NCBI GenBank assembly: GCA_964019695.1
Contig: OZ026515.1
Coordinates: 142,918,152-142,982,151 of the forward strand
Origin: Loripinus fragilis
Lineage: Eukaryota > Mollusca > Bivalvia > Lucinida > Lucinidae
Direction of reading: 5' to 3'
Length of the DNA stretch: 64,000 nucleotides
Shown: positions 4,125-49,818 of the stretch, piece by piece
Position numbering within the stretch: the stretch's first letter is position 1
Layout of the letters: every line of letters starts with the position of its first letter
The notes under the pieces: generated by a model
Told to the model about the DNA's origin: nothing
Database searches by the model: none
The model's input: only the letters and a program-made list of their open reading frames with translations
Made by a program: the position numbers and the translations under genes

Positions 4125-5396
4125 CAAGGTTGGCAATCGACCGGTCAATATGCATATTGACCAGACCAGTGGTCATTACTGGTTTTAACCGGTCATTACT
4201 GGTCGATTGGTGGTCAATTGGTCGATTGAAATAACTTGGTTGATGTGAAGATACTTGGCATTATTTATCCCCCGTTTACTGAACTCTTAAAGACTAAAAG
4301 TAGTTTAATATAAGGTAATATATTGAGGTTTAACTGAAAATGTGTTGTTGTTTTGTAAGTTGATTTTGCTTTAAAAAAAAGTATTACTAATTAATAAGCC
4401 TTAAGATAAACAAAAATCAAATGTCAATAGTTTTAGATCTTCAGTCTATATCATTACCACAACTTTTAGTTCAGACTAACAGTCTTTAACTTATTTACTA
4501 TTAACCATTAATAAAAAAAAAGGCAAATTCAAGTAATGAAAATAAATAAATTTTAGAACTAGCTTTTTTCATAGAAATAAAAAAATATTTAAATCAAGGA
4601 CTTATTTTAAAATGAGAGTAAGAAAAAAACAATACTTCAAATTGATCATCAAAAAGGTCATCATGTACAAATAAAAGATGTTGTATTAGTTAAAACTCAC
4701 ATTGGTTTGGTTTCTTACCTGAAAAGACAAAGGTGTGAAATTATAAAGAAAACACTTAATGTTGAACAATATATCAAGGAGTTATTCTATATTTTAAATA
4801 CCCTGGAACAAACAAAACTGTCAAAATACCTGGCATGTCTCTCAGACTGGAGAAGGTGTGTCCAGTTTATAACACCTATCCAATCACTGAGCTTAAAATG
4901 TATTGGCTAATTCAGTGGCATCAGTGTGTATATAGAGATGTGAAAGGGTGGTCATTCAGTAATCTGCTATTATCAGTTAACAATTAACCAAGTGTCATAA
5001 ACTAGTAAAAGTTATTGTCTCAAAATTGAGCAAAAAATCCCTGTATGGTTATTCGATTCTGCCTTTGATGATGCAAGAAAAACTAGTGTTAGGTGCATGG
5101 ACTGTGAAGCAGAACTCAGTGCTAAGGTATTGAGATGGAAATCTCACCATGACAGGTGCCCTTGGCAGGGACGAAACAGTATTTTTTTTTCTTTTTTCAA
5201 TAGATAGAACACAAAACCTGTGCAAATATCTCAATCCACCACAAAAACTTCCTTTAGAATTTTCAATCGACCACTCAGATTCGTATTGACCAGTATTGAC
5301 CAGTATTGACCACTTTTTGGCATATTGACCGGGGCGGTTTTAACCGGTTAAAACCACTGGTTAAAACCGGGGGGTGGTTTTGACCGCCCAACCTTG
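4125..5396 (+). mobile_element. non-autonomous hAT-type element (1.27 kb)
   Basis: Terminal inverted repeats CAAGGTTGG...CCAACCTTG and an exact 8-bp TSD GATTCAAC (4117-4124 and 5397-5404) match the hAT superfamily rule. Both ends carry many copies of a TATTGACCAG / GGTCAATA subterminal motif (4141-4215 and 5283-5330). The interior retains only a BED zinc-finger fragment in the + orientation. It interrupts exon 4 of the DDE-like gene. Confidence 0.85.
5019..5186 (+). pseudogene. BED-type zinc-finger remnant of a hAT transposase
   Basis: The + frame reads IPVWLFDSAFDDARKTSVRC and continues with M-D-C, about 17 residues, then H-H-D-R-C-P. The C-x2-C...H-x3-C spacing and the aromatic lead are typical of BED fingers at the N-terminus of hAT transposases. 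No catalytic domain remains. Confidence 0.65.
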
Positions 5397-7483
5397 GATT
5401 CAACCTTACTGGTATGCTTCTTCACAAGTTTTGTCACATCAAGTTCAGGGAATAGGAAGTTGAGGTGTCTTGTCAGATAATCAATTTCGGCTGGATTCAA
5501 TGAGTCCAAGACTTCGACTGGTTTATCTTTAAGTGACAGCCTGCGAAATCTGTTTTCTATGATTTGTCTCATTGATTCAGTGGATGTTTGCCAGTGATCT
5601 TTTACATCTGGGTGCTTTTTGGTCATTTCTCTGATGCTTTCCATGCTATTACAGTTTTTTAACAACTTCTCAATATCTTCAGCACATTCTTGTCTGGATA
5701 AGGCACAGTTCTGAAGGCCAATATTTAACAAAGACATCACTCGCTCTGCTGGATTGGTCCAACTATGGCCTGGTGCACACCTTGCTGCAATGTACATGTC
5801 GAGGTCAAGTTCCTTGAATAAACATATTGCTGAGCATTTGACACTTTCCAATGTATTTCTATGATCCGTACCCCCATCAGAGAATTTCAAAATGACACTT
5901 GGTTGCTCTTCTAAAGATTTTACCTGTTTAACCATGGCAGCAGCATGCCTCATAGGTGTTGACTGTTGGAAAACTGAATCATTTATAATTGTGGTAACGT
6001 TTCCACGGGAAAATGACTTTTCAATTGAGTCCGGAACTTCACACCGCATGTAAACTGAAGGTGTTAAACTACCTTTGTGATGTAAATCATGATCGGCAGC
6101 AACAAGGACACTATTTGTAGGAGCAATGGACTTTTTCCCCCGTACACCAGTTGATAATGCCAAGTTCGGCTCACCGATAGGAATCTTTGCCTTGTCATCA
6201 CAAAAATACATGGCACAATCACTACCTAGAAGCACTGCCATATTTCTCATGTACTTAAATTGAGCGCTGCAGTAGTGATCATCTGGATGTGAAATCCTCA
6301 ACTGTCTCTGCTGTATTTTGTACTGCACTGGTATTTTAGAAGTAAAACTAAGGGCAGTATGGGCGTATGGGTTTCTAGGGGTAAACTGAAGACGTACCAA
6401 AGAAGCTGATGGGATACTTGTGTTCTCAGGACACTTCTCCTTTGTTTGACTGATGAGATCTTTCAATGATAAAATCTGAGACATGTGAGCCTCATTATGC
6501 CGCCTATCATCTGCAGCTGTGTACTCTTCAATTACTTCTGCCAGTGTGGAAAAGAAGGTGTCATACATGCCTGTGGGACGGCCAGGGTTTATATGTCTCA
6601 GATCCGGAATTAGACCAGTCTCTCCCTGAAATATCAGTCTGAGGCGCTGCTGCATATCTGGGTGTGATGCTGAAGATGAATCAAGAGTAAGTTCCTTATA
6701 AATCAAATCAAGCAATGATGGCTTGACGGATGCTACATTTGCTACTCTTCTTTTGAACTGTGCTTTCATAAAACGAGTATGAATTTCTGGTAATTTGGGC
6801 TGAATTTTCAACATAGTTGATGCAACTTGAGACATTTTCTCTGCTTCACTTCTATTCTCTGAAACTTTAACTAGACAGAATACTGTGGTAATACCCCCAC
6901 CAGGGCAATACTTATAAAAGTCAACATCAACAGACAACTGTAAGTTATTAAAAAAACGAAGCCGTTGCATTGCATTCTCAAATGGCTGAGTAATGTGATC
7001 AGTTTCACTGAAAAACACAGGCTCAAGGGCATCAGCAAGGCAAACACTTTTATCTAGAAGTTGATACTGTTCTCTTATTTGGAATACAGACTTATGCACT
7101 GTTTGAACAGACGTGTTTTCAGAAACTTGGCGAACAGGGTGATCCAACATTCTGTTCTCTTGAACCTTTTCTTTTTGATGACTGAGGTAGTCAGAATAGG
7201 CTGCAAAGCACTCAGCTAAAGACTTTATCATTTCATATCCAACTTCCCATGGCTCTGAACTTCTCATAATGGGCCTGGTACATAAACTAAAAAGTGCTTC
7301 AGCATGGGATTTCAGTCGATCACTTTCCATAGGTTGAGCTTTCAGCTTCTTCCTACGATGTTCATTAAATCCTTGGAACTCGTCGAACACTGTTGGTACA
7401 GGAACTACTTTGGAATCTCGTCTGCTTCTGTCATTGATAACATCATGCTGGTTGGTAATGTACCAGAGGGCATTGGTCAATAC
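5397..7483 (-). pseudogene. DDE-like gene exon 4, main part
   Basis: It starts after a GTCTGCTTTCAG acceptor and gives about 695 residues without a stop (VLTNALWYITNQHDV...). Candidate catalytic blocks are FCDDKAKI near 6190, SDGGTDHR near 5870 and NPAERVMS near 5745. The frame runs into the hAT element at 5396 and stops at 5348. After the element it resumes in frame at 4116 once one copy of the 8-bp TSD is discounted. Confidence 0.8.
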
Positions 7484-10501: not shown

Positions 10502-11105
10502 CTGAAATGAGAATTGTCCAAAGTTTAATCCATATAATCCTGGCGTCCTTTTTGTGGGACATCGGCAAATAGTGCAGAACCAGATCAGATGCCCCAAGAC
10601 ACGGTGTCTGATCAGGGTCTCCACTGTATGCTTACAGACGTTTCTATTTAAACTTGAATAAAAATGAAAAATACCACCCAGCAACCCTAAAATTGGAAAT
10701 GGACTCGTCCAATTGATACCAGGGTTTAAACACTTTAATAAGGCCAAGACAGGCATGATAAAAATTGGGCCTATATCCCTTCCCAAAATATCTTAGGGAG
10801 GCCGGGGTGGGCTGTTTCTTGATTTTTGAAAAATTTCGGCATAGGTTCCCCTAGCCAGAGCAATTTCTATGTTTTAAATCAACTCAATACATAGAGGGGT
10901 GGCCTGTTTTCAGATTTTTGAAAAATTTCAGCATAGATTCCCCTAGTCGGATCATTTTCAAATATTTTAGTTTGTGGACCTGTAAACAGTGTTGGGTGAA
11001 GACAGAGAGAGCAGTCAAGTTTGGATAGATTTCCCTTATCCTAAAGTTCTTGCACTGCAGTATTGATAGATTTTGTTGGAAACTGTTTTGATATTTAAAA
11101 TGTAC

Positions 11106-11236: not shown

Positions 11237-11240
11237 AACG

Positions 11241-11478
11241 TATAGTAATCTTACCTATCCTATAGGTATACGGCCGCTAGGCTATGGTAATTCTGCGCTT
11301 CTTTGTAGTTTTATCGTCTTGACGTCTATCTCCTCGCACGGCTCTCTCTAGTCTCGTCCTCTACCACAAGATGTTGTCCTTTTTATAGCTCCATCCCATT
11401 CGGAACACCTCGAATACCGAGCCGGACATAACCGGTGCAAGCCGACTGGAATAGAATAGAACGGAGCCCTCCACTACA
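11241..11478 (-). repeat. 3' LTR (238 bp)
   Basis: It is identical to 20959-21196 except for one base (A at 11368, G at 21086 on the + strand). It is preceded on the coding strand by a purine tract and followed by the TSD. Confidence 0.95.
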
Positions 11479-11492
11479 CTCCTCCCCTCTTT
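11479..11492 (-). other. polypurine tract
   Basis: AAAGAGGGGAGGAG on the coding strand abuts the 3' LTR directly, as expected for the plus-strand DNA primer. Confidence 0.85.
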
Positions 11493-11739
11493 ATTTGAAG
11501 GTTCTGGGACACATCTTCGTGCTAGCATTCTTCATTATCCGCCCCAATGCTGGGGAGGATCACCATTCTGCATTATCGGCCCCAATGCTGGGGAAGATAT
11601 TCGATTTACGGCCACATCCACAATGCTATGGTCATGTTAGCCGGTCAGTTAATCCTCATGCACTATTCCTGGGCAAGCTACCAGCAGATAACCAGTACTA
11701 AAGTGCAAAGCTGTCTACAGTAACTGACAACTGTCACCT

Positions 11740-13674
11740 CTACGCTGACATCTGGTAGAGTCGACTCGCATTGCGCGAGGCATACTCTAAGACTTGCTTC
11801 CAGGTCTGGCCTCTGATCTTGGCAACCATATCTGCAACCATCCCAATCAAGGCAGGTGACGAGTGGGCTCTTCCACCAATCCTGAAGTAGGGAGCATCTG
11901 TCTCCAACAGCAGTTTGTCTTCCTGAAGCTGTCTCAGGGCCTCCTTACTGTCATGGCTGAAATGTTGTACCATCCCTGTGAAACCGAAGTGCGTGTTAGG
12001 GAACACTCGTTGCCACTGGTCCATGGTATCACGATTTCCTCCGAAGCAGTGAAGGTGGATCTTTTGCTCCCGTGGGACCACTCCTTTCAACTGATATAGG
12101 AGCTGTATATATGTGCCTTCTGGTTGACCAGACATCATTCCTCTCGCGTGAAGAACAAGGACATGCGAGGGCTGGAGATGCTCCAGAACTCTGTCCAATA
12201 CCGCATGCTGCTTGGGCCACATGGATGGATCCGCTGTATAGTCCAACCCGACCTCTCCCAACGCTCCAACCTCTGGCATGGACAAACAACGCTGGAAAGC
12301 TGGGAAAGCTGCCTCTGTACTTGAATCCAGGTACTTTGGATGCAGTCCGATCGCTATCTTGTATCCTGCTTGGGTGAGGTGTTGTACCTCCTCGCTTGAC
12401 GGATAGGTCTCAGGATCACAAAATATGATGACTCCTCCGGTCAACTTGAATCGGAATTGTCTATCAGGACGGACATGCTTACATAGGTCTTCAACAGAAG
12501 CTCTTGGTTTTCCTAGAGCGGCCCTTGACCTGTCCAGGTGGAAATGACTGTCAATCCCCTCCGGTAGGTCCTCTTCTTCCTCCTTCCATGTAGAGCTAGG
12601 CGGGTGCCTGGTGATGAGATCTTGCCTGTCACGCTCAGACAAGCAGGCAACTATGACTAACAAAATCCTCCAGTGTAGAAGAGATGCCGGTGAATTTGCT
12701 GGGACCAAAGTGAACTCCTCTGGAACGGAACAACCCTGAAGATGGCACATGGCTTCCATGGCTTTCGTCTGGCGCATCGAGACTTGACACTTTCCACGAC
12801 GAACTTGCTTCAAGTCATTAACGTAGTCCACTAGTCCGCTTAAATTGGAGACGGAGCCTAGTAGACGACTCTCGCAGATCTTCAGGACGCTGATCCTCCT
12901 TCTCATGAGCTCCTCTGTAGGTTCAAGTTGATCATCGAAGATCCCGGGAAGATGCGTAGCTGCATGCATCCTTGAAACTTCGCTGCTGCACTTGACTACA
13001 GGACAAATCTCAACTTGCCTGTTCACTTGGGCTGGTCTTGTGTCTTTCTTTGGACCTCTTCTAGGCGATGATGAAGCTTTGACTATCAGTGACATCGGAT
13101 TTCCGGAGCCTGTCTGATCCCGCTTTGAAGCGTACTCTACCCTCCGGGACACATGTCGCTTTGGGCTCACCCGACGTCTCTGGCGGTATGGTGACCTTGG
13201 TCGACGTCTTGGACTTTCCCTCCTCCTTTGCGGTGACCTGCTTGGAGACCTCCTTCTCTGTTTATGGTCTCTTCTTGATCGACTTGGAGACAAAGGCCTC
13301 TTTCTGGGCGAAGTCCTACGGGGTGGCCTGGCTTGGTCGCGCTTGGGCGATGATTTTCTCTCCGACGCCGTCTTGTCCTTTGTAGTCTTCTTCATCGAAT
13401 CTTCCTTTGGGAATCTCACTGGAGATCTTGACTTCTTCTGAGCAACAGTTTCCTCGGCAACAATGCTGCTGACGAGGCAACTGGTCTCCGCTGATGGCTG
13501 AGGACTCTGGGCAACAATGCTGCTGACGAGAGCCTCCTTCTGTGGTGATGGGCAACCGCTGACATCTGACATCAAGACGTCCACATCAAACTCCTCGATT
13601 GTTGGCGAGTCCTGGCCCTCGGTGGATACTGCAAACAACTTCTCCTCTTCCTCGGCTGTGATGGAGTAGTCCAT
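11740..13674 (-). CDS. ORF3 main segment: RS-rich domain plus TatD-type nuclease
   Basis: 644 residues. Residues ~80-180 are rich in Arg-Ser/Arg-Pro dipeptides, like SR splicing factors. The middle (~230-360) is helical and unassigned. From ~372 a TatD metal-dependent hydrolase domain follows with all expected ligands: IDSHFHLDR (HxH), GALGEVGLDY (Glu ~475), LVLHARG (His ~508), HLHCFGG (His ~543) and LLLETDAPYF (Asp ~592). TatD family enzymes are 3'-5' exo/endonucleases on DNA or RNA, so an active nuclease is predicted. The open frame extends upstream of the first Met to overlap the preceding ORF. Roles in cDNA processing, host repair or RNA control are speculation. Confidence 0.85.
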   Translation of the reverse strand: MDYSITAEEEEKLFAVSTEGQDSPTIEEFDVDVLMSDVSGCPSPQKEALVSSIVAQSPQPSAETSCLVSSIVAEETVAQKKSRSPVRFPKEDSMKKTTKDKTASERKSSPKRDQARPPRRTSPRKRPLSPSRSRRDHKQRRRSPSRSPQRRRESPRRRPRSPYRQRRRVSPKRHVSRRVEYASKRDQTGSGNPMSLIVKASSSPRRGPKKDTRPAQVNRQVEICPVVKCSSEVSRMHAATHLPGIFDDQLEPTEELMRRRISVLKICESRLLGSVSNLSGLVDYVNDLKQVRRGKCQVSMRQTKAMEAMCHLQGCSVPEEFTLVPANSPASLLHWRILLVIVACLSERDRQDLITRHPPSSTWKEEEEDLPEGIDSHFHLDRSRAALGKPRASVEDLCKHVRPDRQFRFKLTGGVIIFCDPETYPSSEEVQHLTQAGYKIAIGLHPKYLDSSTEAAFPAFQRCLSMPEVGALGEVGLDYTADPSMWPKQHAVLDRVLEHLQPSHVLVLHARGMMSGQPEGTYIQLLYQLKGVVPREQKIHLHCFGGNRDTMDQWQRVFPNTHFGFTGMVQHFSHDSKEALRQLQEDKLLLETDAPYFRIGGRAHSSPALIGMVADMVAKIRGQTWKQVLEYASRNASRLYQMSA

Positions 13675-13697
13675 TGGCTCATCCGCAAGAGCATCCT

Positions 13698-14063
13698 CTA
13701 CACGCCTCTGAATGGTGGGGTCCTGTCCAAGGCGGATGGACCGGTGGCAGGCATCTTCGATGGCTTCTTACTTGTCTGCGGAAGAGCATACAAATGTTGG
13801 TTGATCCAGTCACGACCATGGAACTGAAGAGTATCCGCATCTTTGGCGACGTTCTTCAACCATTGCTTGTTGTTCTGCTGACGTGCCAGATCAGCCTGTC
13901 CTTCGAGGGCCTCTAACCTCATCCCCTGAGTAGCTGTTACACACAACATCAGTTCGTTGATGATGGACCTGCTGCTGTAGAGCTCTTTTCTGTCCGTCAT
14001 CTCTCTCAGGGTCCTGATGAACTTAGGTAGGAGTTGAGTGGTATTTTCTTGTTGAGCTGCCAT
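13698..14063 (-). CDS. ORF3 first segment (helical N-terminus)
   Basis: 121 residues starting MAAQQENTTQLLPKFIRTLR, 84 nt after the pol stop. It is predicted helical and charged, with no recognised domain. It runs out of frame at 13698, but the frame of the next segment is open from about 13776 and overlaps it, so the two were probably one protein split by a single frameshift near 13776-13785. A programmed shift is possible, but no good slippery site was seen. Confidence 0.6.
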   Translation of the reverse strand: MAAQQENTTQLLPKFIRTLREMTDRKELYSSRSIINELMLCVTATQGMRLEALEGQADLARQQNNKQWLKNVAKDADTLQFHGRDWINQHLYALPQTSKKPSKMPATGPSALDRTPPFRGV

Positions 14064-14073
14064 GTTGCAGAAT

Positions 14074-14075
14074 CT
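14074..14075 (-). promoter_or_regulatory. candidate splice acceptor before ORF3
   Basis: The coding strand reads CTCTTCTTTATACCTTCAG, then 10 nt, then the ORF3 ATG (14063). A pyrimidine tract plus CAG so close to the start codon suggests that ORF3 is translated from a spliced RNA, perhaps joined to the LTR donor at 20973. Confidence 0.5.
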
Positions 14076-14147
14076 GAAGGTATAAAGAAGAGACTGATTA
14101 TTACAATTGTCAGATAATTACAATTGTCAACAGGGAAAAATAGTAGT

Positions 14148-16301
14148 TTACAAATTTCTTTTACATTTCCCGCACTGGTACTCATCAATAGACAGCGCCT
14201 CTGTTGGAGTGATATCCACGCATGCTCCATGGAACCATTCATCACATCCATCGCACTGTATCATGAATCTACCCTGCCATGGTTCTCTGCATAGGCAATA
14301 GACCGTAGAATCATCGACATCACTGATCTGAGTGCCATTGGGGTTGTCCTGCCATTTCTTGATCCAATCTGGTAGTTTTCTGTCTTTGCATGGCTTCAAT
14401 CTGTCATGATTTGCCACGAACATGCTCTTTCTCAGCTGGACCCGGAACAATGCTGCTGATAGCCTTTCTATCACTATGGCTGGACCCTTCCACGGTGAAC
14501 TTAATTTTCTACAATTTCCCTTCAATACGGCCGTATCTAAGAGATAGACGATGTCTTTCGCCTGGTAATTTCTCTTGACGACTCCTCTTAAATCGTAGTC
14601 CCTCTTCATACGTTTCAATGTTGTTTTCAGCTGGGTTCTTGCAGCATTATGAGCTGTTTGGATGTTGCGCGTTAACTTTGCCACAAACTGGTCAATATCT
14701 TCGTGTTCTTCAGCAGGTAATGGGAACATCAAATAGGCTGGTGTGTTCACCTCACGTCCCAACATCATTTTGTTCGCCGTATAACCTGTTCTACGATTCA
14801 CTGAACTTCTGAGAGCTCCCGCAATCTGTTGCAGGTGAAGATCCCACTGATCTTGCGAGTCCCTGATGAAACATCTGACCGCATCCATCAAAGTTCTGTT
14901 GTATCGTTCTACTTGACCATTCGAGGACGCTCTATATGGAGTTGTCCTTGCTTTGTGGATCTCTAATGCTTCGCAGAGGGCTGTAAATAGTTTAGATTCG
15001 AAGTTCTGCCCCTGGTCAGAGAATATCTGGAATGGATACCCGAACCTGGAGAAGAAACCGTCGATCGCTGCTTTTGCTGTCACCTCTGCTGTCTGTGAAG
15101 GTAATGGTACACACTCCACCCACTTGGTGAACTGATCCACCATCATCAAGATGTGCTCATTTCCTCTTGGAGTTTTGGGAAGAGGTCCTAAGAAGTCAAT
15201 ATGTACCCTTTCCATTGGTGCTCCTGCTTGATACTCATGCATGGGTAGTCGTCCCTTGATGCTGCTTTTCTTGTTCTTGTTGCACACGTCACAAGAGACC
15301 ACATACTCAGTAATATCCTTTCCCATGCCATACCAGAAGAATTTTTCTTTGATCCTGGCTTTTGTCCTTTCTATACCTTGATGTCCTGAAGAGGGAAGAT
15401 CATGGTTAAGGCGGATAGCTTCTTGCTTCAAGTTTTCCGGTACTACCAAGTCTTTATCCCCTTTGTCAGCTCTCTGATGATATAGAAGTCCACCAATGAT
15501 GAGAAATTCTTCTTTGGCCAACCAGTAGTACTTCCCAGCAGGGCTTGCAATAAAAAGGTCTGCTTCAGAAGGAACCTGTTTGGAATCTAACCAATCCAAA
15601 AGAAATGTGAGTGTATCATCCCTCCTTTGTTGTTTCTGCAATTCTGCAACATCTAAACCCCAACAACACTGAATAGGTTTCTTTTGTTCATTTACACCAC
15701 AGACTAATACACGGTTATTTCTACCGATCAAATTGACACTAGCTGTACCCTCTTTGGATAGAATTTCTATAAATGGCTCTTCGCTAGACAATGATCTGGT
15801 TATTCCCCAGTCAGCTTTTGTTGTCTTCTGTGTAGACTGATTCTCCACCGTATAAGATAAACCATCATAACAGGCTGGCTTGCCATTCTTGATTACCTGG
15901 TCATTCGCCCCGACACCTATGGTCTCTGCTGATATCCTGTGACACGACTGCTGCTTCTTGGAGTTCTGTTTCACACTCAAAGATGTATCACCACCAACCA
16001 ATGGGTGCGCCAATCCCCCATGACCGTCAACCATCACCTCCGGCTCCCTAGAGACTCCCAATTGTCTCATGGCTCTAGAAGTACCTTGTGACGTCAATGG
16101 AACTGCGTCGTCAACTTCCCTTGCAAAGTGTCCCCATTGGCTATCAGCCTTTACGCAGTAACTGCAACCTCCACAGGGTAGGTCACTTGGCTTTACTCCT
16201 GGAATAAAATTATCACACTGTATCTCTTGGCATGGAATCCTGGATAGTGCATCGGCATTTGTATGTTTAACTCCCGATCGATGTTCCAAAACCATGTCAT
16301 A
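14148..16301 (-). CDS. pol: Pol C-terminal part: integrase with PHD finger
   Basis: It resumes at YDMVLEHRSGVKHTNADALS (end of the RNase H/connection region). An HHCC zinc domain follows (HDLPSSGHQG...VVSCDVCNKNK), then an integrase core with DDE residues (VHIDFLGPL; IFSDQGQNFES; SNGQVERYNRTL) and a GPY/F-like C-domain (SSPWKGPAIVIERLS). The last ~50 residues form a PHD finger with a Cys4-His-Cys3 pattern (YCLC, IQCDGCDEWFHGACVD, YQCGKCK). PHD fingers read histone H3 tails, so this probably does the targeting job that chromodomains do in chromoviruses. Now cut off from the RT by the insert. Confidence 0.9.
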   Translation of the reverse strand, partial: YDMVLEHRSGVKHTNADALSRIPCQEIQCDNFIPGVKPSDLPCGGCSYCVKADSQWGHFAREVDDAVPLTSQGTSRAMRQLGVSREPEVMVDGHGGLAHPLVGGDTSLSVKQNSKKQQSCHRISAETIGVGANDQVIKNGKPACYDGLSYTVENQSTQKTTKADWGITRSLSSEEPFIEILSKEGTASVNLIGRNNRVLVCGVNEQKKPIQCCWGLDVAELQKQQRRDDTLTFLLDWLDSKQVPSEADLFIASPAGKYYWLAKEEFLIIGGLLYHQRADKGDKDLVVPENLKQEAIRLNHDLPSSGHQGIERTKARIKEKFFWYGMGKDITEYVVSCDVCNKNKKSSIKGRLPMHEYQAGAPMERVHIDFLGPLPKTPRGNEHILMMVDQFTKWVECVPLPSQTAEVTAKAAIDGFFSRFGYPFQIFSDQGQNFESKLFTALCEALEIHKARTTPYRASSNGQVERYNRTLMDAVRCFIRDSQDQWDLHLQQIAGALRSSVNRRTGYTANKMMLGREVNTPAYLMFPLPAEEHEDIDQFVAKLTRNIQTAHNAARTQLKTTLKRMKRDYDLRGVVKRNYQAKDIVYLLDTAVLKGNCRKLSSPWKGPAIVIERLSAALFRVQLRKSMFVANHDRLKPCKDRKLPDWIKKWQDNPNGTQISDVDDSTVYCLCREPWQGRFMIQCDGCDEWFHGACVDITPTEALSIDEYQCGKCKRNL

Positions 16302-16408
16302 TTGGGTTAACTCTTTAGCGACATGGTTAGAGTGGTCGACTGTCACGCAGGAGTTCTGGGTTCGAATCCTGGCGGACACAGATATTTTCCTCTTGGAATT
16401 ACTTCACT
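16302..16408 (+). mobile_element. tRNA-Asp-like repeat (copy 2) inserted in pol
   Basis: It matches 685-794 and 26608-26718 (GGGTTAACTCTTTAGCGACA through GGAATTACTTCACT), including the CTGTCACGC arm and a GGTTCGAATCC B box. It brings stops and a frame change between RNase H and integrase. No clear TSD is visible, and a few native codons seem to be missing. Confidence 0.8.
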
Positions 16409-18723
16409 GGTCCCTGCGGCTCTTTAAATCGCAATAACCAAGTTAAACTTGAATGGTCAGTCCGTATAATAAATTGTTTACCTAATAAATGGTGTCTAAA
16501 ATGTCTACAAAACCTCACCATTGCCAATAATTCTTTTCTTGTAGTACAGTAGCGTCGTTGTTCTTTTGTGAGAGCAGAACTACCGTATGCGATAGCTTTC
16601 TCTTCACCTCCCTGAACTTGCAGTAGTTCAGCTCCAATGGCTTCGTTGGATGCATCACAGTCTAGGATAAAGGAATCCTGTGTGTTTGGAAGGGCAAGTA
16701 CTGTTGGACTAGTCAACGCCTCTTTCAAGTTGTCAAAAGCTTGCTGTTGTTCGTCTGTCCACTGGAATTTCTTCTTCCCCACCACTCTGTATAATGGATC
16801 TGCCAACTGTGAAAAGTTCTTGATGAAACTTCTGTGATAGTTTGCCAGTCCCATAAACCGTTCCACATCCTTCGAACATGCAGGTACAGGCCATAATGCT
16901 ACGGACTGTATATCTGCGTCTGTCACTGACAGTTTGTCGTTGCTGATCAGCCTGCCTAGGAATTCGACTTCTTTTTGGAAGAAAATGCATTTTTTGGGTT
17001 TCAATTTTAGACCAAATTTCCGGAAACGCTTCAATGCTGCATCTAGATTTTCTAGATGATCATCAAAGCTTTTCCCCATGATTAAGACATCATCTAAGAA
17101 AGCAAGCAAAGTCTTCCAATTCAGACCCCTGAGTACCAGGTTCATGACCCGAGCATAACTCGCTGGCGCATTGCACAATCCAAACCCCATTTTTACGTGC
17201 TCAAATAGGCCGTATCTTGTGTGAAATGCAGTTTTGTGTCGATCCTCAGGTTTGATGTTAATCTGCCAGTAGGCAGAATTAGCGTCTAACCTAGAAAACC
17301 GCACATTTCCAGCCAACGTATCGAGACAGTCATCAACCAGGGGCAGGGGAAACACATCTTTTACTGTTACCTTATTTAGACCCCTATAGTCAATACACCA
17401 ACGTACACTACCATCACGTTTCCTGATGAGGACTGGTGATGATGCCCAATCTGAAGCGGATTCTTTAATTACACCAGCCTCCAGCATTTTCTTTAGATGA
17501 GCTTCTTCTTCACCCACAAAGCAGGCTGGGGTCCGGCGCATGCGTTGCTTGATTGGTCTTGCATCTCCTGTGTCGATACCATGCTCTATATCTGTAAAGG
17601 TACCTAAGTCGAATTCACTTTTGGCGAAGACGTCTTCATGCTTGTTCAACAATGCTGCTAAACGAGATTGTTCACTTGCAGACAGATGCTCTGTAGATGC
17701 CTTGTAAGTCTCAGACAAATGCTCTGGTACCGGATCAGCTTGGTCTTTTTTCTCTGAAACTTGACAAACATTACTGGTTGTGCATTCTTCTTCTTCTTCT
17801 GGAAAGAATTCCGCAACTGTAGAAGCTGTGGCAACTTCTTTACCTTTTCGAAGTAGCTTATACCTGTCTGTGCAATTGACAATGCAAACAACTGGGTCTG
17901 TGCCAGCTGAGCGCACTAATCTTGGTCTGAAAATCTTTTCTGATTGAATTTGTTCCACTACGTAGTCTGACATCTGTTGATCCATAGCACACTTCACCTG
18001 AGCAGCAGAATTTGGAGGAATCACTATTCGCTTGGCTATAGTTACTCTGGCTACCTTTGGATTAGCATTCTCTTCTCCTGTGTTCATCATGATCTCATGG
18101 CCTTTAAACACAAACTTCTGTTTACCCATGTCAATTATTGCATCACCTTCTCTCATTATATCTACACCAAACAGCATATCCTGTTCTATTGGAGCTACAT
18201 AGACGGGTCCCCTATAATAGTTGTTACCTATTTTTAATTTGACCGGTCCAGCCACAAAACCTTTCATGGATAACTGTCGACCTGCTGTGTCAAGGCGTAC
18301 ATCATAAAGCTTTTTGGGCGGTATACGAAGTGACTGGTAAACTTTATCAGAGATGATCGTAACTTCTGCCGCAGAATCTATAACTGCTTCCACCAAAGAA
18401 TTATCTATCCGAACTGGAATCGTGAACTTTGATATGGACTTTAACATGCATACCTTCACATGACTGGTTTCGGACTTCAACTTCTGCTTGATATCTTCTT
18501 GTGTTGTTGGACCACAATGCTGCGGGCCAACAGTAGAGTTGTCTATGTGGCCATCATGCGATGGAAACATAGTGGCTTGATCTTTCTGCTTCACTTCTGA
18601 TGTCTGACTTCTGGAACTGCTGCTTGTTAGTTCTTCTGTGGGCCTTCTTTGCTTTGGGTCCGAGCCTTGGCCCCCTGGCTCGTCCCGGGTTTGTTTAAAT
18701 CTAGCTGATGCTGTTTTGGGCAA
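16399..18723 (-). CDS. pol: Pol N-terminal part: protease, RT, RNase H
   Basis: About 774 codons, read from gag by -1 frameshift; the in-frame ATG at 18723 lies upstream of the slip site and is probably not used. In order: aspartic protease near residue 110 with VIDSAAEVTIIS (DSA in place of the common DTG/DSG), Gypsy RT (RWCIDYRGLNKV, MGFGLCNAP, catalytic FLDDVLIM), and RNase H (ILDCDASNEAIGAELLQ, IIRTDHSSLTWLLRF). The frame ends at a stop created by the tRNA-Asp-like insert just after RNase H. Confidence 0.9.
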   Translation of the reverse strand: MPKTASARFKQTRDEPGGQGSDPKQRRPTEELTSSSSRSQTSEVKQKDQATMFPSHDGHIDNSTVGPQHCGPTTQEDIKQKLKSETSHVKVCMLKSISKFTIPVRIDNSLVEAVIDSAAEVTIISDKVYQSLRIPPKKLYDVRLDTAGRQLSMKGFVAGPVKLKIGNNYYRGPVYVAPIEQDMLFGVDIMREGDAIIDMGKQKFVFKGHEIMMNTGEENANPKVARVTIAKRIVIPPNSAAQVKCAMDQQMSDYVVEQIQSEKIFRPRLVRSAGTDPVVCIVNCTDRYKLLRKGKEVATASTVAEFFPEEEEECTTSNVCQVSEKKDQADPVPEHLSETYKASTEHLSASEQSRLAALLNKHEDVFAKSEFDLGTFTDIEHGIDTGDARPIKQRMRRTPACFVGEEEAHLKKMLEAGVIKESASDWASSPVLIRKRDGSVRWCIDYRGLNKVTVKDVFPLPLVDDCLDTLAGNVRFSRLDANSAYWQINIKPEDRHKTAFHTRYGLFEHVKMGFGLCNAPASYARVMNLVLRGLNWKTLLAFLDDVLIMGKSFDDHLENLDAALKRFRKFGLKLKPKKCIFFQKEVEFLGRLISNDKLSVTDADIQSVALWPVPACSKDVERFMGLANYHRSFIKNFSQLADPLYRVVGKKKFQWTDEQQQAFDNLKEALTSPTVLALPNTQDSFILDCDASNEAIGAELLQVQGGEEKAIAYGSSALTKEQRRYCTTRKELLAMVRFCRHFRHHLLGKQFIIRTDHSSLTWLLRFKEPQGPVK

Positions 18724-20648
18724 TCCCTTCTAAAATGACCCTTTTCATTACACAAGTAACAGATACTGTCTTCTGGGCGAAGTCTAATCTTAGGCCTCCG
18801 TCTCAAACTAGCTTGCTGTCGCAATAACTGTGCCATATTTTCTTGGAGTTTCTCAATTTTGTCTTCCAAAGAATTCTGGCTAGCCTTGGGTTTCCGATCA
18901 GCCATGGCACAGACTTGAGGTATATCTGTGTCATAGTCTTCAGCCGTGACTCTTGAAGAAACATTACGGTCTGTCTTATGGCCATATATAGCATCTTTTG
19001 TGTGCTGGTATAATCTGATCTCATTCAACGCATCCTCAATACTCAATGACTTTTTCATGCAAACATGGTGGCCCGCCTCAGCTTCTCTTAATCCCTGGCA
19101 GAATCTAGCTACGGCCTGTTGATTACTATATTTTTCTGGCAAATCTTTAAATGCTTTACCAGACAGGGTCAACACCCGGTCCGCCCAGTCTTCTAGAGAT
19201 TCATCTTTCTTTTGGGTTGCTTGTTGGAACCGTACTTGCGCTGAAGCTGGCAGCTCTCTATCACCAAATCGTTCATCTAATTTTTTTAACAATTTTCTGT
19301 ATGATAGATGTTTTGTTCTTTCCATTAAGGTGGCACAAAAGTCCGCTGCTTTTCCAGTTAAACACCAAATTAAACAATCTAAGCACTCTTCAGCTGTCCA
19401 ATCTGATGATTCTGCATATTTTGTAAATCTATGCTTGAAGGGTAGCCAGTTGCTCTTGCCATCATATTGCAGCTGTTTTGGCAAAGTACGAATGGCTGAT
19501 TTCTTTTGGCTCTTCTTCTTCTTTTTGGACACACGTTTTGAGTCAGAATCTGAGTCGGAATCTTCAGATGATGACGAAGATGACGACGAAGATGACGAGG
19601 AAGATGAAGTATCATGCCGATGTTTCTTTGCTGACTTCTTATGTTTCTTCTTTTTTAAATCCGAATCTGAGTCTGAATCTTCCGTTGACGATGAAGACGA
19701 TGATGATGATGAATGTTTCTTTTGCTTCTTTTTTCTTGAACTCCTATGCCTGGATTTAGAAGACTTATATTGATCTTTTTTGTGTGATTTCTTATGTTTA
19801 TGTTTCTTTTGAATTTCATCGGAGCTACTCTCAGCTGAACAAGTATCTTCTGAACTCTCACTATTTTCTGAAAGCTGGTGCTTGTTTTTGTGTTTTTTGT
19901 TTTCAGAACTTGAATGTGACTTGTGTTTTTTGGATGACTTTTTTTCTGAAAGTGAGTGCTTGTTTTTACTACTTTTATTATCTGAAAGCTGCGCTTGTTT
20001 GTCTGTAGCACTGTCATCTGCAGAGGTCTTCTGTTTTGATGCTTTTTGGTCTTTATCCATTTCTGATGATTTTTGCTTTTTCTCTGCACCCTCAGAATAT
20101 TCAAGATTTAATTTTCGTCTGACTTGTGGACTTTGTGGTCTGTCATCTGTGTGACTCTTTGTTCTTTGTTTTGGAAAGATTGAACCTGGATGAATAAGAT
20201 CTCCTTGCATGCCTGTTGCCGTCTTGTATGAGGGCATAGTCCATGGGACAGAAGGTGCTCCTGGCCCACCGAATGCGCCTCGATCCATTGGGAACGTTGA
20301 ATCGTCTGGCCATAGTCTGTTCTTTATTGCATCTTTTATCTGTGACACGTCTTCTTCTGTCCACTGTGCCTTGGAACCATCATCGTAGTCCAAACTGTCT
20401 GCACCATAGCCGTCGTCCTGTTGCTCATCCGCTGTGTCATAGTCGGGATTTTGCCTGAAGTCTAAACACGCCAGGATGTCCTCTGGAATCCTTTTTCTCA
20501 AGATGCTTGAGAGCAAAGGGGCTGTCACATTGCCTTGCCGCAGTCTCACTTCAACAATGGCCTTAGCTAATTTGTCACCAATACCAGGTATGATTCGCAG
20601 CTCTCTGGGGGTGGCAAAATTCACAGCAATTCTGTGCTCAGGGTCCAT
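18627..20648 (-). CDS. gag: Gag polyprotein with helix-hairpin-helix
   Basis: 673 residues. Residues ~8-60 (VNFATPRELRIIPGIGDKLA...) match the helix-hairpin-helix DNA-binding fold of the ComEA type, unusual in a Gag. Residues ~130-390 are a Lys/Ser/Asp-rich low-complexity region with poly-Ser/acidic runs. Residues ~400-560 form a Retrotrans_gag capsid-like domain (YDGKSNWLPFKHRF..., CQGLREAEAG). A CCHC zinc knuckle CYLCNEKGHFRRDCP follows near residue 635. It packages RNA and forms particles. The N-terminal HhH might bind nucleic acid before or after nuclear entry. The start is the first ATG after the leader. The ORF overlaps pol by 97 nt. Confidence 0.9.
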   Translation of the reverse strand: MDPEHRIAVNFATPRELRIIPGIGDKLAKAIVEVRLRQGNVTAPLLSSILRKRIPEDILACLDFRQNPDYDTADEQQDDGYGADSLDYDDGSKAQWTEEDVSQIKDAIKNRLWPDDSTFPMDRGAFGGPGAPSVPWTMPSYKTATGMQGDLIHPGSIFPKQRTKSHTDDRPQSPQVRRKLNLEYSEGAEKKQKSSEMDKDQKASKQKTSADDSATDKQAQLSDNKSSKNKHSLSEKKSSKKHKSHSSSENKKHKNKHQLSENSESSEDTCSAESSSDEIQKKHKHKKSHKKDQYKSSKSRHRSSRKKKQKKHSSSSSSSSSTEDSDSDSDLKKKKHKKSAKKHRHDTSSSSSSSSSSSSSSEDSDSDSDSKRVSKKKKKSQKKSAIRTLPKQLQYDGKSNWLPFKHRFTKYAESSDWTAEECLDCLIWCLTGKAADFCATLMERTKHLSYRKLLKKLDERFGDRELPASAQVRFQQATQKKDESLEDWADRVLTLSGKAFKDLPEKYSNQQAVARFCQGLREAEAGHHVCMKKSLSIEDALNEIRLYQHTKDAIYGHKTDRNVSSRVTAEDYDTDIPQVCAMADRKPKASQNSLEDKIEKLQENMAQLLRQQASLRRRPKIRLRPEDSICYLCNEKGHFRRDCPKQHQLDLNKPGTSQGAKARTQSKEGPQKN
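18656..18699 (-). promoter_or_regulatory. -1 programmed ribosomal frameshift signal
   Basis: In the gag-pol overlap the coding strand has the slippery heptamer T TTA AAC (18699-18693) in the gag frame, a 6-nt spacer, then a hairpin: GGG-A-CGAGCC pairs with GGCTCG-GA-CCC (18686-18656) around a 10-nt loop. Pol lies in the -1 frame, exactly as this signal requires. TTTAAAC is a well-known efficient -1 slippery site. Confidence 0.9.
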
Positions 20649-20680
20649 TTTGAGACAGGAAGTAGCAACACAAAATAACC

Positions 20681-20682
<2 letters not shown>

Positions 20683-20742
<60 letters not shown>
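20683..20742 (-). repeat. 60-nt poly(A) tract in the gag leader
   Basis: On the coding strand an uninterrupted A60 run lies about 34 nt before the gag ATG. It may be a homopolymer expansion, a retroposed tail or a functional unstructured leader. Run length may be affected by assembly error. Confidence 0.8.
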
Positions 20743-20944
20743 CAGGCTTTTTTCAGGGACGACGCTGTTGTGGGCTTTGGACTAGTGTATCAGGTTTGAA
20801 TGGATGGCCAGTGCAATTTCTTTAGGAGACAGACGAGTGCAAATTGACGATGGAAGCGCGAAATGGCGGGAAAGGCCACTTGCAAATTTCAAAATTTCAA
20901 GAATACCACACGTGTTCTGACGATAGGCGACGTTTCTCCAGATT

Positions 20945-20957
20945 ACCGCTGCCACCA
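20945..20957 (-). other. primer-binding site, tRNA-Leu type
   Basis: TGGTGGCAGCGGT starts one base after the 5' LTR. It is complementary to the 3' end of metazoan tRNA-Leu species whose acceptor arm ends CGCTGCC-A-CCA. The tRNA identity comes from memory of tRNA sequences, not a search. Confidence 0.8.
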
Positions 20958-20972
20958 ATATAGTAATCTTAC

Positions 20973-20974
20973 CT
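20973..20974 (-). promoter_or_regulatory. candidate splice donor at the LTR/leader border
   Basis: The coding strand reads GATAG|GTAAGAT, a strong 5' splice-site match, 15 nt before the PBS. It could pair with the acceptor before ORF3 to make a spliced ORF3 mRNA. This is inference from consensus only. Confidence 0.5.
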
Positions 20975-21096
20975 ATCCTATAGGTATACGGCCGCTAGGC
21001 TATGGTAATTCTGCGCTTCTTTGTAGTTTTATCGTCTTGACGTCTATCTCCTCGCACGGCTCTCTCTAGTCTCGTCCTCTACCACGAGATGTTGTC

Positions 21097-21105
21097 CTTT
21101 TTATA
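21097..21105 (-). promoter_or_regulatory. LTR TATA box
   Basis: TATAAAAAG on the coding strand, about 92-100 nt into the LTR. The same site in the 3' LTR is 11379-11387. It marks the U3/R side of a Pol II promoter. Confidence 0.75.
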
Positions 21106-21196
21106 GCTCCATCCCATTCGGAACACCTCGAATACCGAGCCGGACATAACCGGTGCAAGCCGACTGGAATAGAATAGAACGGAGCCCTCCACTACA

Positions 21197-21314
21197 AACG
21201 GCTTTCCAGCTTCTCGAATGACAGAGAACAATTAAGAATTTTGAAGGTCCGGAGCTCTGCTGCGTGTTCACATCTTGGCCTGAAGATATTCAGCAAAACG
21301 CTGACAGAATCCAT
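21197..21314 (-). pseudogene. DDE-like gene exon 1, 5' part with start codon
   Basis: ATG at 21312-21314 opens a frame (MDSVSVLL...) that stays open until the retrotransposon end at 21196. Once the element and one TSD copy are discounted, the same frame continues without a stop into 11236-11106, which is strong evidence that the element landed inside coding sequence. Confidence 0.7.
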
Positions 21315-26586: not shown

Positions 26587-26715
26587 TGCTATTCCTAACA
26601 GCCTCGCTGTTGGGTTAACTCTTTAGCGACATGGTTAGAGTGGTCGACTGTCACGCAGGAGTTCTGGGTTCGAATCCGGGCGGACCCAGAATATTTTCCC
26701 CTTGGAATTACTTCA
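26587..26715 (+). mobile_element. tRNA-Asp-like repeat, copy 3 (solo)
   Basis: It is almost identical to 663-791 (TGCTATTCCTAACAGCC ... GGAATTACTTCA) with the best-preserved B box GGTTCGAATCC. The PBS-like sequence of copy 1 is absent, as in a solo LTR. No clear TSD was seen. Confidence 0.75.
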
Positions 26716-49623: not shown

Positions 49624-49818
49624 GGGAGCGCAGTGGCTCAGTGGTAGAGTGCTTGACTTGAGACCGAGGGGCCACAGGTTCGAGCCTCGCCAGCGTCACT
49701 GTGTTGTGTCCTTGAGCAAAACACATTAATCCTAGCTTAGTATTGGTTCAACCCTGGAAGACCCGTCCCTATATAACTGAAGATTGTTGATGGGATGTAA
49801 AGAATCAAATCAAACAAA
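49624..49818 (+). mobile_element. tRNA-derived SINE family A, copy 3
   Basis: Full-length, CAAAAC tail. ACAGTTTGCAAGA before and ACAGTTTCCAAGA after the element are a 13-bp TSD with one mismatch. Confidence 0.85.

What the first reader, a model, noticed from the sequence alone, without database searches (positions are those of the whole stretch)
11740..14063. A Gypsy retrotransposon carrying its own TatD nuclease fused to an RS domain
ORF3, between pol and the 3' LTR, encodes an Arg/Ser-rich domain and a TatD-type hydrolase with all five metal ligands (HxH, Glu, His, His, Asp). The usual occupant of this position, if any, is env. TatD enzymes are DNA/RNA exo-endonucleases linked to repair and apoptosis. 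A captured nuclease could trim cDNA ends, clear RNA:DNA hybrids, counter host defence or cut target DNA, and the RS domain suggests nuclear or splicing-factor contacts. Conservation of the full active site in a young element argues that it was functional until recently. I do not know of a described element with this layout.
Basis: partly seen in the sequence, partly recalled or inferred. Interest (0 to 1): 0.93.

Follow-up and report, generated by a model that had tools for sequence, protein, structure and literature searches.

The report
Clam Gypsy elements carrying TatD nuclease
A large and old group of virus-like jumping genes in clams and their relatives carries an extra gene for a predicted DNA- or RNA-cutting enzyme of the TatD family, which natural selection conserves about as strictly as the element's own integrase, and which the element likely uses in the nucleus on its own DNA and RNA copies.

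Summary
The finding is real and larger than reported. The window holds a 9,956-bp Gypsy element (minus strand): 238-nt LTRs differing at one base, CGTT duplication, gag, PR-RT-RH-IN-PHD, ORF3. ORF3 ends in a complete class II (HxH) TatD domain. This copy is broken: ORF3 by a frameshift, pol by a SINE-like insert. Ten of 12 other full-length near-identical copies have ORF3 without a stop. TatD is no lone capture: in this 1.99-Gb genome 79 of 150 listed TatD matches have this lineage's integrase 1.0-2.8 kb upstream, 1 of 150 in any other arrangement, and 87 of 98 such integrase matches have TatD/ORF3 downstream. Divergent elements show the same plan between paired LTRs (4 of 10 read), and other species show the linkage. 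All six metal ligands are kept in 110 of 114 relatives. TatD pN/pS is 0.105, integrase-PHD 0.087. A splice-acceptor-like site precedes ORF3 in 5 of 8 families (strict cut), so ORF3 is probably made from a spliced RNA, like env. The RS part is a variable linker. Ten paper searches found no such element; rotifer elements carry another nuclease (DEDDy) as ORF3, so I call it a new variant. Activity and substrate are untested.

The parts
20959..21196 (-). 5' LTR, 238 nt; donor-like TAG|GTAAGA with GT at 20972, 14 nt before the LTR 3' end
   Evidence: Direct repeat with 11241-11478, 237 of 238 identical; donor scan (the offset printed there for the window is off by the 64-nt flank)
11241..11478 (-). 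3' LTR
21197..21200 (.). Target-site duplication CGTT (5' side)
   Evidence: Same four bases at 11237-11240
11237..11240 (.). Target-site duplication CGTT (3' side)
20946..20957 (-). Primer-binding-site-like TGGTGGCAGCGG
   Evidence: Read from sequence one base after the 5' LTR; tRNA partner not tested
18627..20648 (-). gag ORF, 673 aa: N-terminal helix-hairpin-helix, PNMA-like part, CCHC knuckle
   Evidence: Pfam
16399..18723 (-). pol, first part: aspartyl protease, RT, RNase H
   Evidence: Pfam
16302..16382 (.). tRNA-SINE-like insert that breaks pol in this copy; its second copy is at 26610-26690
   Evidence: 81-nt repeat, 98%; frames; homology seems to run about 25 nt further (by eye)
14148..16379 (-). 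pol, second part: integrase zinc-binding and core domains and a C-terminal PHD finger (about 14163-14297); the first codons of this frame lie in the insert
   Evidence: Pfam
14074..14091 (-). Predicted 3' splice acceptor, AG ending 10 nt before the ORF3 ATG
   Evidence: 12 of 14 pyrimidines before TCAG; predicted only
13698..14063 (-). ORF3, N-terminal part: helical domain of unknown family; last residues out of frame in this copy
   Evidence: Aligns with the start of P0001 and others; model pLDDT 87.6
11740..13674 (-). ORF3, main part, 644 aa: linker with Arg/Ser-rich stretch, CCHH motif, middle domain, TatD
13120..13428 (-). Arg/Ser-rich part of the variable linker (approximate)
   Evidence: Sequence; not conserved
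12952..13005 (-). C-x4-C-x7-H-x3-H motif (C224, C229, H237, H241), putative zinc finger
   Evidence: pattern in 68 of 76 proteins long enough to show it
11752..12555 (-). TatD domain (ORF3 residues 374-641) with all six metal ligands

Best explanation
[quoted passage not shown] Shown: the position of ORF3; its presence beside most listed integrase matches of the lineage in this genome; its recurrence in other species; the complete active site; a confident TatD fold model; purifying selection in the window's family about as strong as on integrase. Inferred from sequence: splicing from a donor near the end of U5 to an acceptor just before the ORF3 ATG, hence a protein made apart from Gag-Pol; nuclear entry through a basic linker. 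Inferred from characterised TatD enzymes: cleavage directed at 3' ends, AP sites or RNA-DNA hybrids. My choice of step: ORF3 would trim or clear the ends, nicks or residual RNA of the element's cDNA so that integrase can use it, with the N-terminal domain and CCHH motif recruiting it. Odds: lineage with TatD as a constrained gene about 0.95; spliced expression about 0.75; this particular substrate about 0.3.
For: Linkage in the genome: 79 of 150 TatD matches with integrase upstream, 87 of 98 integrase matches with TatD/ORF3 downstream (capped lists). Paired LTRs around the same plan in four of ten divergent elements, three families. Other species: nine contigs of 30 kb or less with both genes, 0.185 expected from 600 length shifts, maximum 2; pol and TatD distances correlate, Mantel r 0.615 or 0.557, p about 0.0008, 10 taxa; a Mytilus edulis gene model with protease, integrase spacer and TatD. 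Active site: six ligands in 110 of 114 proteins; TatD fold, pLDDT 92.9. Selection: TatD pN/pS 0.105, integrase-PHD 0.087; 17 synonymous against 4 nonsynonymous segregating TatD sites, p 2e-8. Splice sites: acceptor-like site in 5 of 8 families against 2.8% of 2024 ATGs; donor-like sites 14-33 nt before the LTR end in 5 of 5 elements. Biochemistry: PMC10085689 and PMC12709183 (abstracts and passages).
Against: No activity, expression, location or substrate is measured. 71 of 150 TatD matches had no integrase match in the capped list and could not be read; 11 of 98 integrase matches had no TatD listed. Six of ten divergent elements showed no paired repeat in the stretches fetched, and two of those (L114, L130) no gag, RT or integrase core there. 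One family lacks the acceptor, one has no nearby ATG after it, one has a weak one; donor-like sites of this score are common (0.49 per 250 nt) and better-scoring ones lie in the leaders of three elements. The constraint test favours stop-free copies. A pair from another family (L119, L121) gives only about 0.49, and L108 against a decayed sister 0.17 and 0.34. P0001 has lost two ligands. The control with unrelated integrases did not complete.
Confidence: 0.45

Rival explanations
1. ORF3 works like CERV of Cer1: a nuclear protein from a spliced 3' ORF that binds the unspliced genomic RNA and gets it out of the nucleus, with TatD acting on RNA or used mainly as a binding fold.
For: Same position and predicted splicing; CERV has a Cys-rich finger and is required for genomic RNA export (PMC10309623, passages); many linkers are basic (net positive in 31 of 58); TATDN2 is cited as an RNase for R-loops.
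Against: CERV's G domain is predicted to be catalytically dead, whereas TatD here keeps its ligands (110 of 114) and is the most constrained part of ORF3.
Confidence: 0.25
2. ORF3 is a counter-defence nuclease that removes host nucleic acids used for silencing or sensing of the element, rather than acting on the element's own copies.
For: Variable linker and separate predicted expression; long retention of an extra enzyme.
Against: The TatD part shows strict conservation, not the fast change expected of an arms race; no direct evidence.
Confidence: 0.15
3. A single host TatD gene copy was caught in this element by chance and is drifting.
For: This copy is frameshifted.
Against: Many families, copies and species; purifying selection.
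Confidence: 0.02
4. The TatDs are ordinary host genes that lie next to retroelement debris.
For: Automatic names such as 'putative deoxyribonuclease TATDN2' in Mya, Mercenaria and Mizuhopecten.
Against: Order and strand are fixed (79 against 1); ORF3 lies inside paired LTRs in the window and in four divergent elements; long intronless frames in many copies.
Confidence: 0.01

Closest known systems
Bdelloid rotifer LTR retrotransposons Juno and Vesta with a DEDDy-type exonuclease (or GDSL esterase) ORF3 (PMC5408684; abstract and passages seen)
   Same: Enzymatic, non-env ORF3 after pol; catalytic residues kept (DEDD reads DEED there); ORF3s of LTR elements described as expressed from spliced messages; similar between elements
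   Different: Another nuclease fold; acquired at least twice and missing from the earliest branches; their evolution shows no significant departure from neutrality there, whereas TatD here is constrained and accompanies 87 of 98 listed integrase matches
Cer1 of C. elegans with CERV (PMC10309623; passages seen)
   Same: Gypsy-type element, large 3' ORF in the env position, spliced message, Cys-rich finger
   Different: CERV has no TatD; its G domain is predicted not to be an enzyme; role in genomic RNA export shown there, not here
Cellular class II TatD enzymes TATDN3 and TATDN2 (PMC10085689, PMC12709183; abstracts and passages seen)
   Same: HxH motif and fold; TATDN2 is reported to have a long N-terminal extension, often with a nuclear localisation signal
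   Different: Here carried by a retrotransposon, with an N-domain, CCHH motif and middle domain that match no Pfam family; relation to TATDN2 not tested
Gypsy clades of molluscs (C-clade, MolGy clades and others; PMC6238403, passages seen)
   Same: Abundant Gypsy elements of molluscs; the lineage here may be one of these clades
   Different: The main text of that paper holds no TatD, PHD or 'additional ORF'; clade assignment not tested

Membership tests
Ty3/Gypsy LTR retrotransposon | LTRs and target-site duplication | tested here: met
   238-nt LTRs, 1 difference; CGTT on both sides
Ty3/Gypsy LTR retrotransposon | gag, then protease-RT-RNase H-integrase in this order | tested here: met
   Pfam; pol is interrupted in this copy
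Ty3/Gypsy LTR retrotransposon | RT groups with Gypsy in a tree | not tested
   No RT tree was made; domain order and relatives only
TatD nuclease, class II | HxH motif and the other metal ligands | tested here: met
   Present in the window; all six in 110 of 114 relatives
TatD nuclease, class II | TatD fold | tested here: met
   Predicted model pLDDT 92.9; best PDB matches are TatD enzymes, E 8.6e-13
TatD nuclease, class II | Nuclease activity | not testable with these tools
   No assay
TATDN2 (host orthologue) | Groups with metazoan TATDN2 in a tree | not tested
   No host TATDN1-3 sequences in hand; only automatic names
Retrovirus- or errantivirus-like env | Envelope glycoprotein as ORF3 | tested here: not met
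   Only TatD matches in Pfam; no transmembrane predictor was run
Bdelloid-type DEDDy ORF3 | DEDDy exonuclease domain in ORF3 | tested here: not met
   Pfam finds TatD only
CERV-like regulator | Spliced 3' ORF | tested here: inconclusive
   Acceptor- and donor-like sites only; no RNA data
CERV-like regulator | Required for genomic RNA export | not testable with these tools
   Needs experiment
SR-type splicing factor | RNA-recognition motif plus RS domain | tested here: not met
   No RRM in Pfam; strong R+S in 8 of 58 linkers only

The most novel reading that the evidence does not exclude
A whole ancient branch of Gypsy retrotransposons, present in many bivalves and perhaps beyond, depends on a dedicated, separately expressed nuclear TatD nuclease to complete its copies: an added enzymatic step in LTR-element replication that was captured once, kept for a very long time in place of env, and inherited together with the element's integrase.
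Probability: 0.35. Interest if true: 0.85.

Novelty: new variant of a known kind. Interest (0 to 1): 0.74.

Why it matters
LTR retrotransposons are thought to need gag and pol, with env as the usual extra. Here a predicted nuclease in that position accompanies most listed members of a large lineage and is under integrase-like constraint in the family tested, so it very probably does something the element needs. That makes 'what does a further retroelement enzyme do?' testable with one small protein. It also warns annotators: 'TATDN2' or 'TatD' models in bivalve genomes, and 'bacterial' TatD proteins in clam-symbiont MAGs, can be retrotransposon ORFs. And it puts a second, unrelated nuclease fold (after rotifer DEDDy) in the ORF3 slot, which suggests a recurrent need.

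Tried and rejected
Rejected: single recent capture or passenger ORF; host gene beside a retroelement, for the linked copies; RS domain as a conserved unit; env.

The N-domain has no PDB fold match at E 0.001; N-domain and middle domain have no Pfam match. In BFVD the best match is a Yasminevirus protein (E 1.3e-10), two more reach 0.001. Ten paper searches listed no paper whose title or abstract links TatD to an LTR element. Few papers hold both words; of these I opened PMC5408686 (a TATDN2 retrocopy), while PMC5840709, PMC7545183, PMC8062694 and those were seen as listings only. PMC12440569 has no hit for ORF3, PHD or splicing; PMC3286476 names a PHD gene only as a neighbour of an insertion. 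Repbase and subscription journals could not be searched. The control with all rve integrases of this genome (PF00665) did not complete, so how often unrelated Gypsy elements lack TatD is unknown. Origin from host TATDN2 was not tested.

Limits of counts: one search listed 120 of 175 hits, one search listed 120 of 520; genome lists are capped (150 of 304 candidates scored, 95 of 4508, 69 of 2594). One search used all 150 rows, all 98 and 66 of 78 (12 short or fragment rows left out). In one search some source labels were shortened. One search used 8 stop-free, equal-length ORF3 copies of the 13 full-length ones, and 6 integrase-PHD copies (one with a stop codon, skipped). One search used 9 ORF3 copies, one with a stop, and counted only codons with two variants one base apart; its last part failed and was redone. 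A2 holds 71 of the 122 hits plus the window; broken or short ones were left out. One search used 40 of 76 bacterial TatDs. The families were grouped partly by eye.

Full report
What is there. On the minus strand of 11241-21196 lies a Gypsy element of 9,956 bp. Its LTRs are 238 nt and differ at one position, with CGTT on both outer sides. One base after the 5' LTR comes TGGTGGCAGCGG, which looks like a primer-binding site. gag (18627-20648) has an N-terminal helix-hairpin-helix, a PNMA-like part and a CCHC knuckle. pol has protease, RT, RNase H, integrase and a C-terminal PHD finger. ORF3 starts 84 nt after the pol stop codon and ends before the 3' LTR. Two lesions mark this copy: a tRNA-SINE-like insert in pol and a frameshift between the N-terminal part (13698-14063) and the main part (11740-13674) of ORF3. 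Relatives carry ORF3 as one frame.

Anatomy of ORF3. Relatives share an N-terminal helical domain of about 110 aa, a long variable linker, a C-x4-C...H...H motif, a middle domain with a conserved NSPAxLxHWR stretch, and TatD. The CCHH pattern was found in 68 of 76 proteins long enough to show it. The model of finger, middle domain and TatD has pLDDT 92.9; its best PDB matches are bacterial TatD enzymes, with human TATDN3 and TATDN1 among the first ten. The N-domain model (pLDDT 87.6) matches no solved fold at E 0.001. Arg and Ser make up half of some 60-residue stretch in only 8 of 58 linkers, the window's among them.

Active site and selection. Six metal ligands are kept in 110 of the 114 proteins that cover them, out of 122; the four exceptions include P0001, a member of the window's own family. 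Among eight stop-free ORF3 copies in this genome pN/pS is 0.105 in TatD, 0.18 in finger plus middle domain and 0.28 in the linker, against 0.087 in integrase-PHD of six copies. Among nine copies, one with a stop, TatD has 17 synonymous and 4 nonsynonymous segregating sites (binomial p 2e-8). Between families synonymous sites are saturated (pS 0.77-0.89) while pN is 0.19-0.46. Within other families the signal is weaker: L108 against a decayed sister (L122, L123) gives dN/dS about 0.17 and 0.34 in two stretches, and L119 against L121 about 0.49.

Linkage in the genome. The window lies in a 1.99-Gb assembly of 685 contigs, probably of a bivalve (inferred: the animals named for TatD relatives are bivalves). 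ORF3 has 78 matches: 13 full-length at 98% or more including the window's (ten of the other 12 without a stop), others at 29-61% with open frames up to 884 codons. TatD as a Pfam family has 150 listed matches, integrase-PHD 98; both lists are capped. 79 of 150 TatD matches have an integrase match upstream on the same strand at 1.0-2.8 kb, 1 of 150 has one in any other arrangement, and 87 of 98 integrase matches have TatD or ORF3 downstream. The 24 integrase matches of the 44-47% group, which do not reach the PHD part of the query, are all among the linked ones (read), so TatD is not confined to the branch with the PHD match. The 71 unlinked TatD matches could not be read. Around the near-identical copies, integrase-PHD, N-domain, TatD and the 3' LTR stand in the same order (12 full-length copies, L085-L096). 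Of ten divergent elements read as separate pieces, four (three families) have a paired direct repeat of 197-245 nt at 96.3-100% that brackets gag, pol, PHD and TatD. In the other six no repeat was found within the stretches fetched, and two of those (L114, L130) lacked recognisable gag, RT and integrase core there.

Other species. Named hosts of listed TatD relatives are Dreissena, Mya, Pecten, Mercenaria, Mizuhopecten, Pinctada, Saccostrea and Mytilus, plus MAGs of Thiodiazotropha and Sedimenticola, which I read as clam DNA in symbiont bins. Equal contig length and source tie a TatD protein to an integrase-PHD protein on nine contigs of 30 kb or less (ten pairs, since two pol proteins share one length), against a mean of 0.185 and a maximum of 2 in 600 length shifts. 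Distances of the paired proteins correlate (Mantel r 0.615 or 0.557, depending on which of the two pol proteins is used; p about 0.0008; ten taxa). A Mytilus edulis gene model contains protease (33% identity), an integrase spacer (38%) and TatD (39%) in one protein. Of the 120 pol rows listed all but five carry the PHD family, and they include gastropods, a sea urchin and a crinoid; whether those have TatD was not tested. A tree puts 72 retro-TatDs in one clade apart from 40 bacterial TatDs (support 0.883).

Expression. Just before the ORF3 ATG stands a pyrimidine tract ending in CAG. Taking near-identical loci together, 5 of 8 families have at least 11 of 14 pyrimidines before the AG within 30 nt of the first in-frame ATG, where 2.8% of 2024 ATGs in the same stretches do. 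One more family has 9 of 14 (15% of ATGs do as well), one has a good acceptor but no nearby ATG, and one has none. A donor-like site (GTAAG in four, GTAAT in L128) lies 14-33 nt before the LTR 3' end in 5 of 5 elements with known LTRs. Sites of that score are common (0.49 per 250 nt), and better-scoring ones lie further down in the leaders of L122, L124 and L128, so the donor is less certain than the acceptor. I infer a spliced RNA for ORF3.

How it may work. Human TATDN1 and TATDN3 show 3' exonuclease and AP endonuclease activity (PMC10085689, abstract and passages). TATDN2 is cited as an RNase that resolves R-loops, and its loss raises R-loops in medaka germ cells (PMC12709183, abstract and passages). 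The element's cDNA has ends, nicks and RNA remnants to deal with (established retroelement biology, recalled). Constraint on the catalytic domain argues for a catalytic role in each round of copying. I therefore prefer cDNA finishing, with RNA export or handling as the main rival (CERV; PMC10309623, passages). None of this has been measured.

Novelty. An enzymatic ORF3 after pol is known: DEDDy exonuclease and GDSL esterase in bdelloid elements (PMC5408684, abstract and passages; also PMC5718144, passages). A TatD ORF3 appeared in none of ten paper searches of an open-access library. Repbase reports and subscription journals were not searchable, so the layout may be recorded there. I file it as a new variant of a known kind.

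Noticed in passing
16302-16382 and 26610-26690: An 81-nt tRNA-like repeat (SINE-like, with a B-box-like GGTTCGAATCC), one copy of which interrupts pol; the likeness seems to run about 25 nt further by eye.
   Followed up: partly
18627-20648 (-): gag has an N-terminal helix-hairpin-helix match (HHH_3, residues 4-41, E 2e-6), unusual to my knowledge (recalled) for a Gag.
   Followed up: no
14163-14297 (-): A PHD finger ends the integrase; all but five of 120 listed pol relatives carry it, but a 44-47% integrase group in the same genome shows no match there and is still TatD-linked.
   Followed up: partly
about 20683-20740: A long A run in the leader between the 5' LTR and gag.
   Followed up: no
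P0003, P0004, P0066, P0078, P0080, P0087, P0092: Proteins deposited as TatD hydrolases of Thiodiazotropha or Sedimenticola MAGs look like host retrotransposon ORF3s, a contamination hazard.
   Followed up: no
P0081: One TatD relative has gag-like CCHC knuckles in its linker.
   Followed up: no
5348-7480 (-): A 710-aa open frame with no Pfam match at E 1.
   Followed up: no
10804-10867 and 10896-10959: A 64-nt direct repeat, 84% alike, 92 nt apart, just outside the element.
   Followed up: no
49627-49699 (+): Predicted tRNA-Ser (anticodon TGA), a gene or a tRNA-derived repeat.
   Followed up: no
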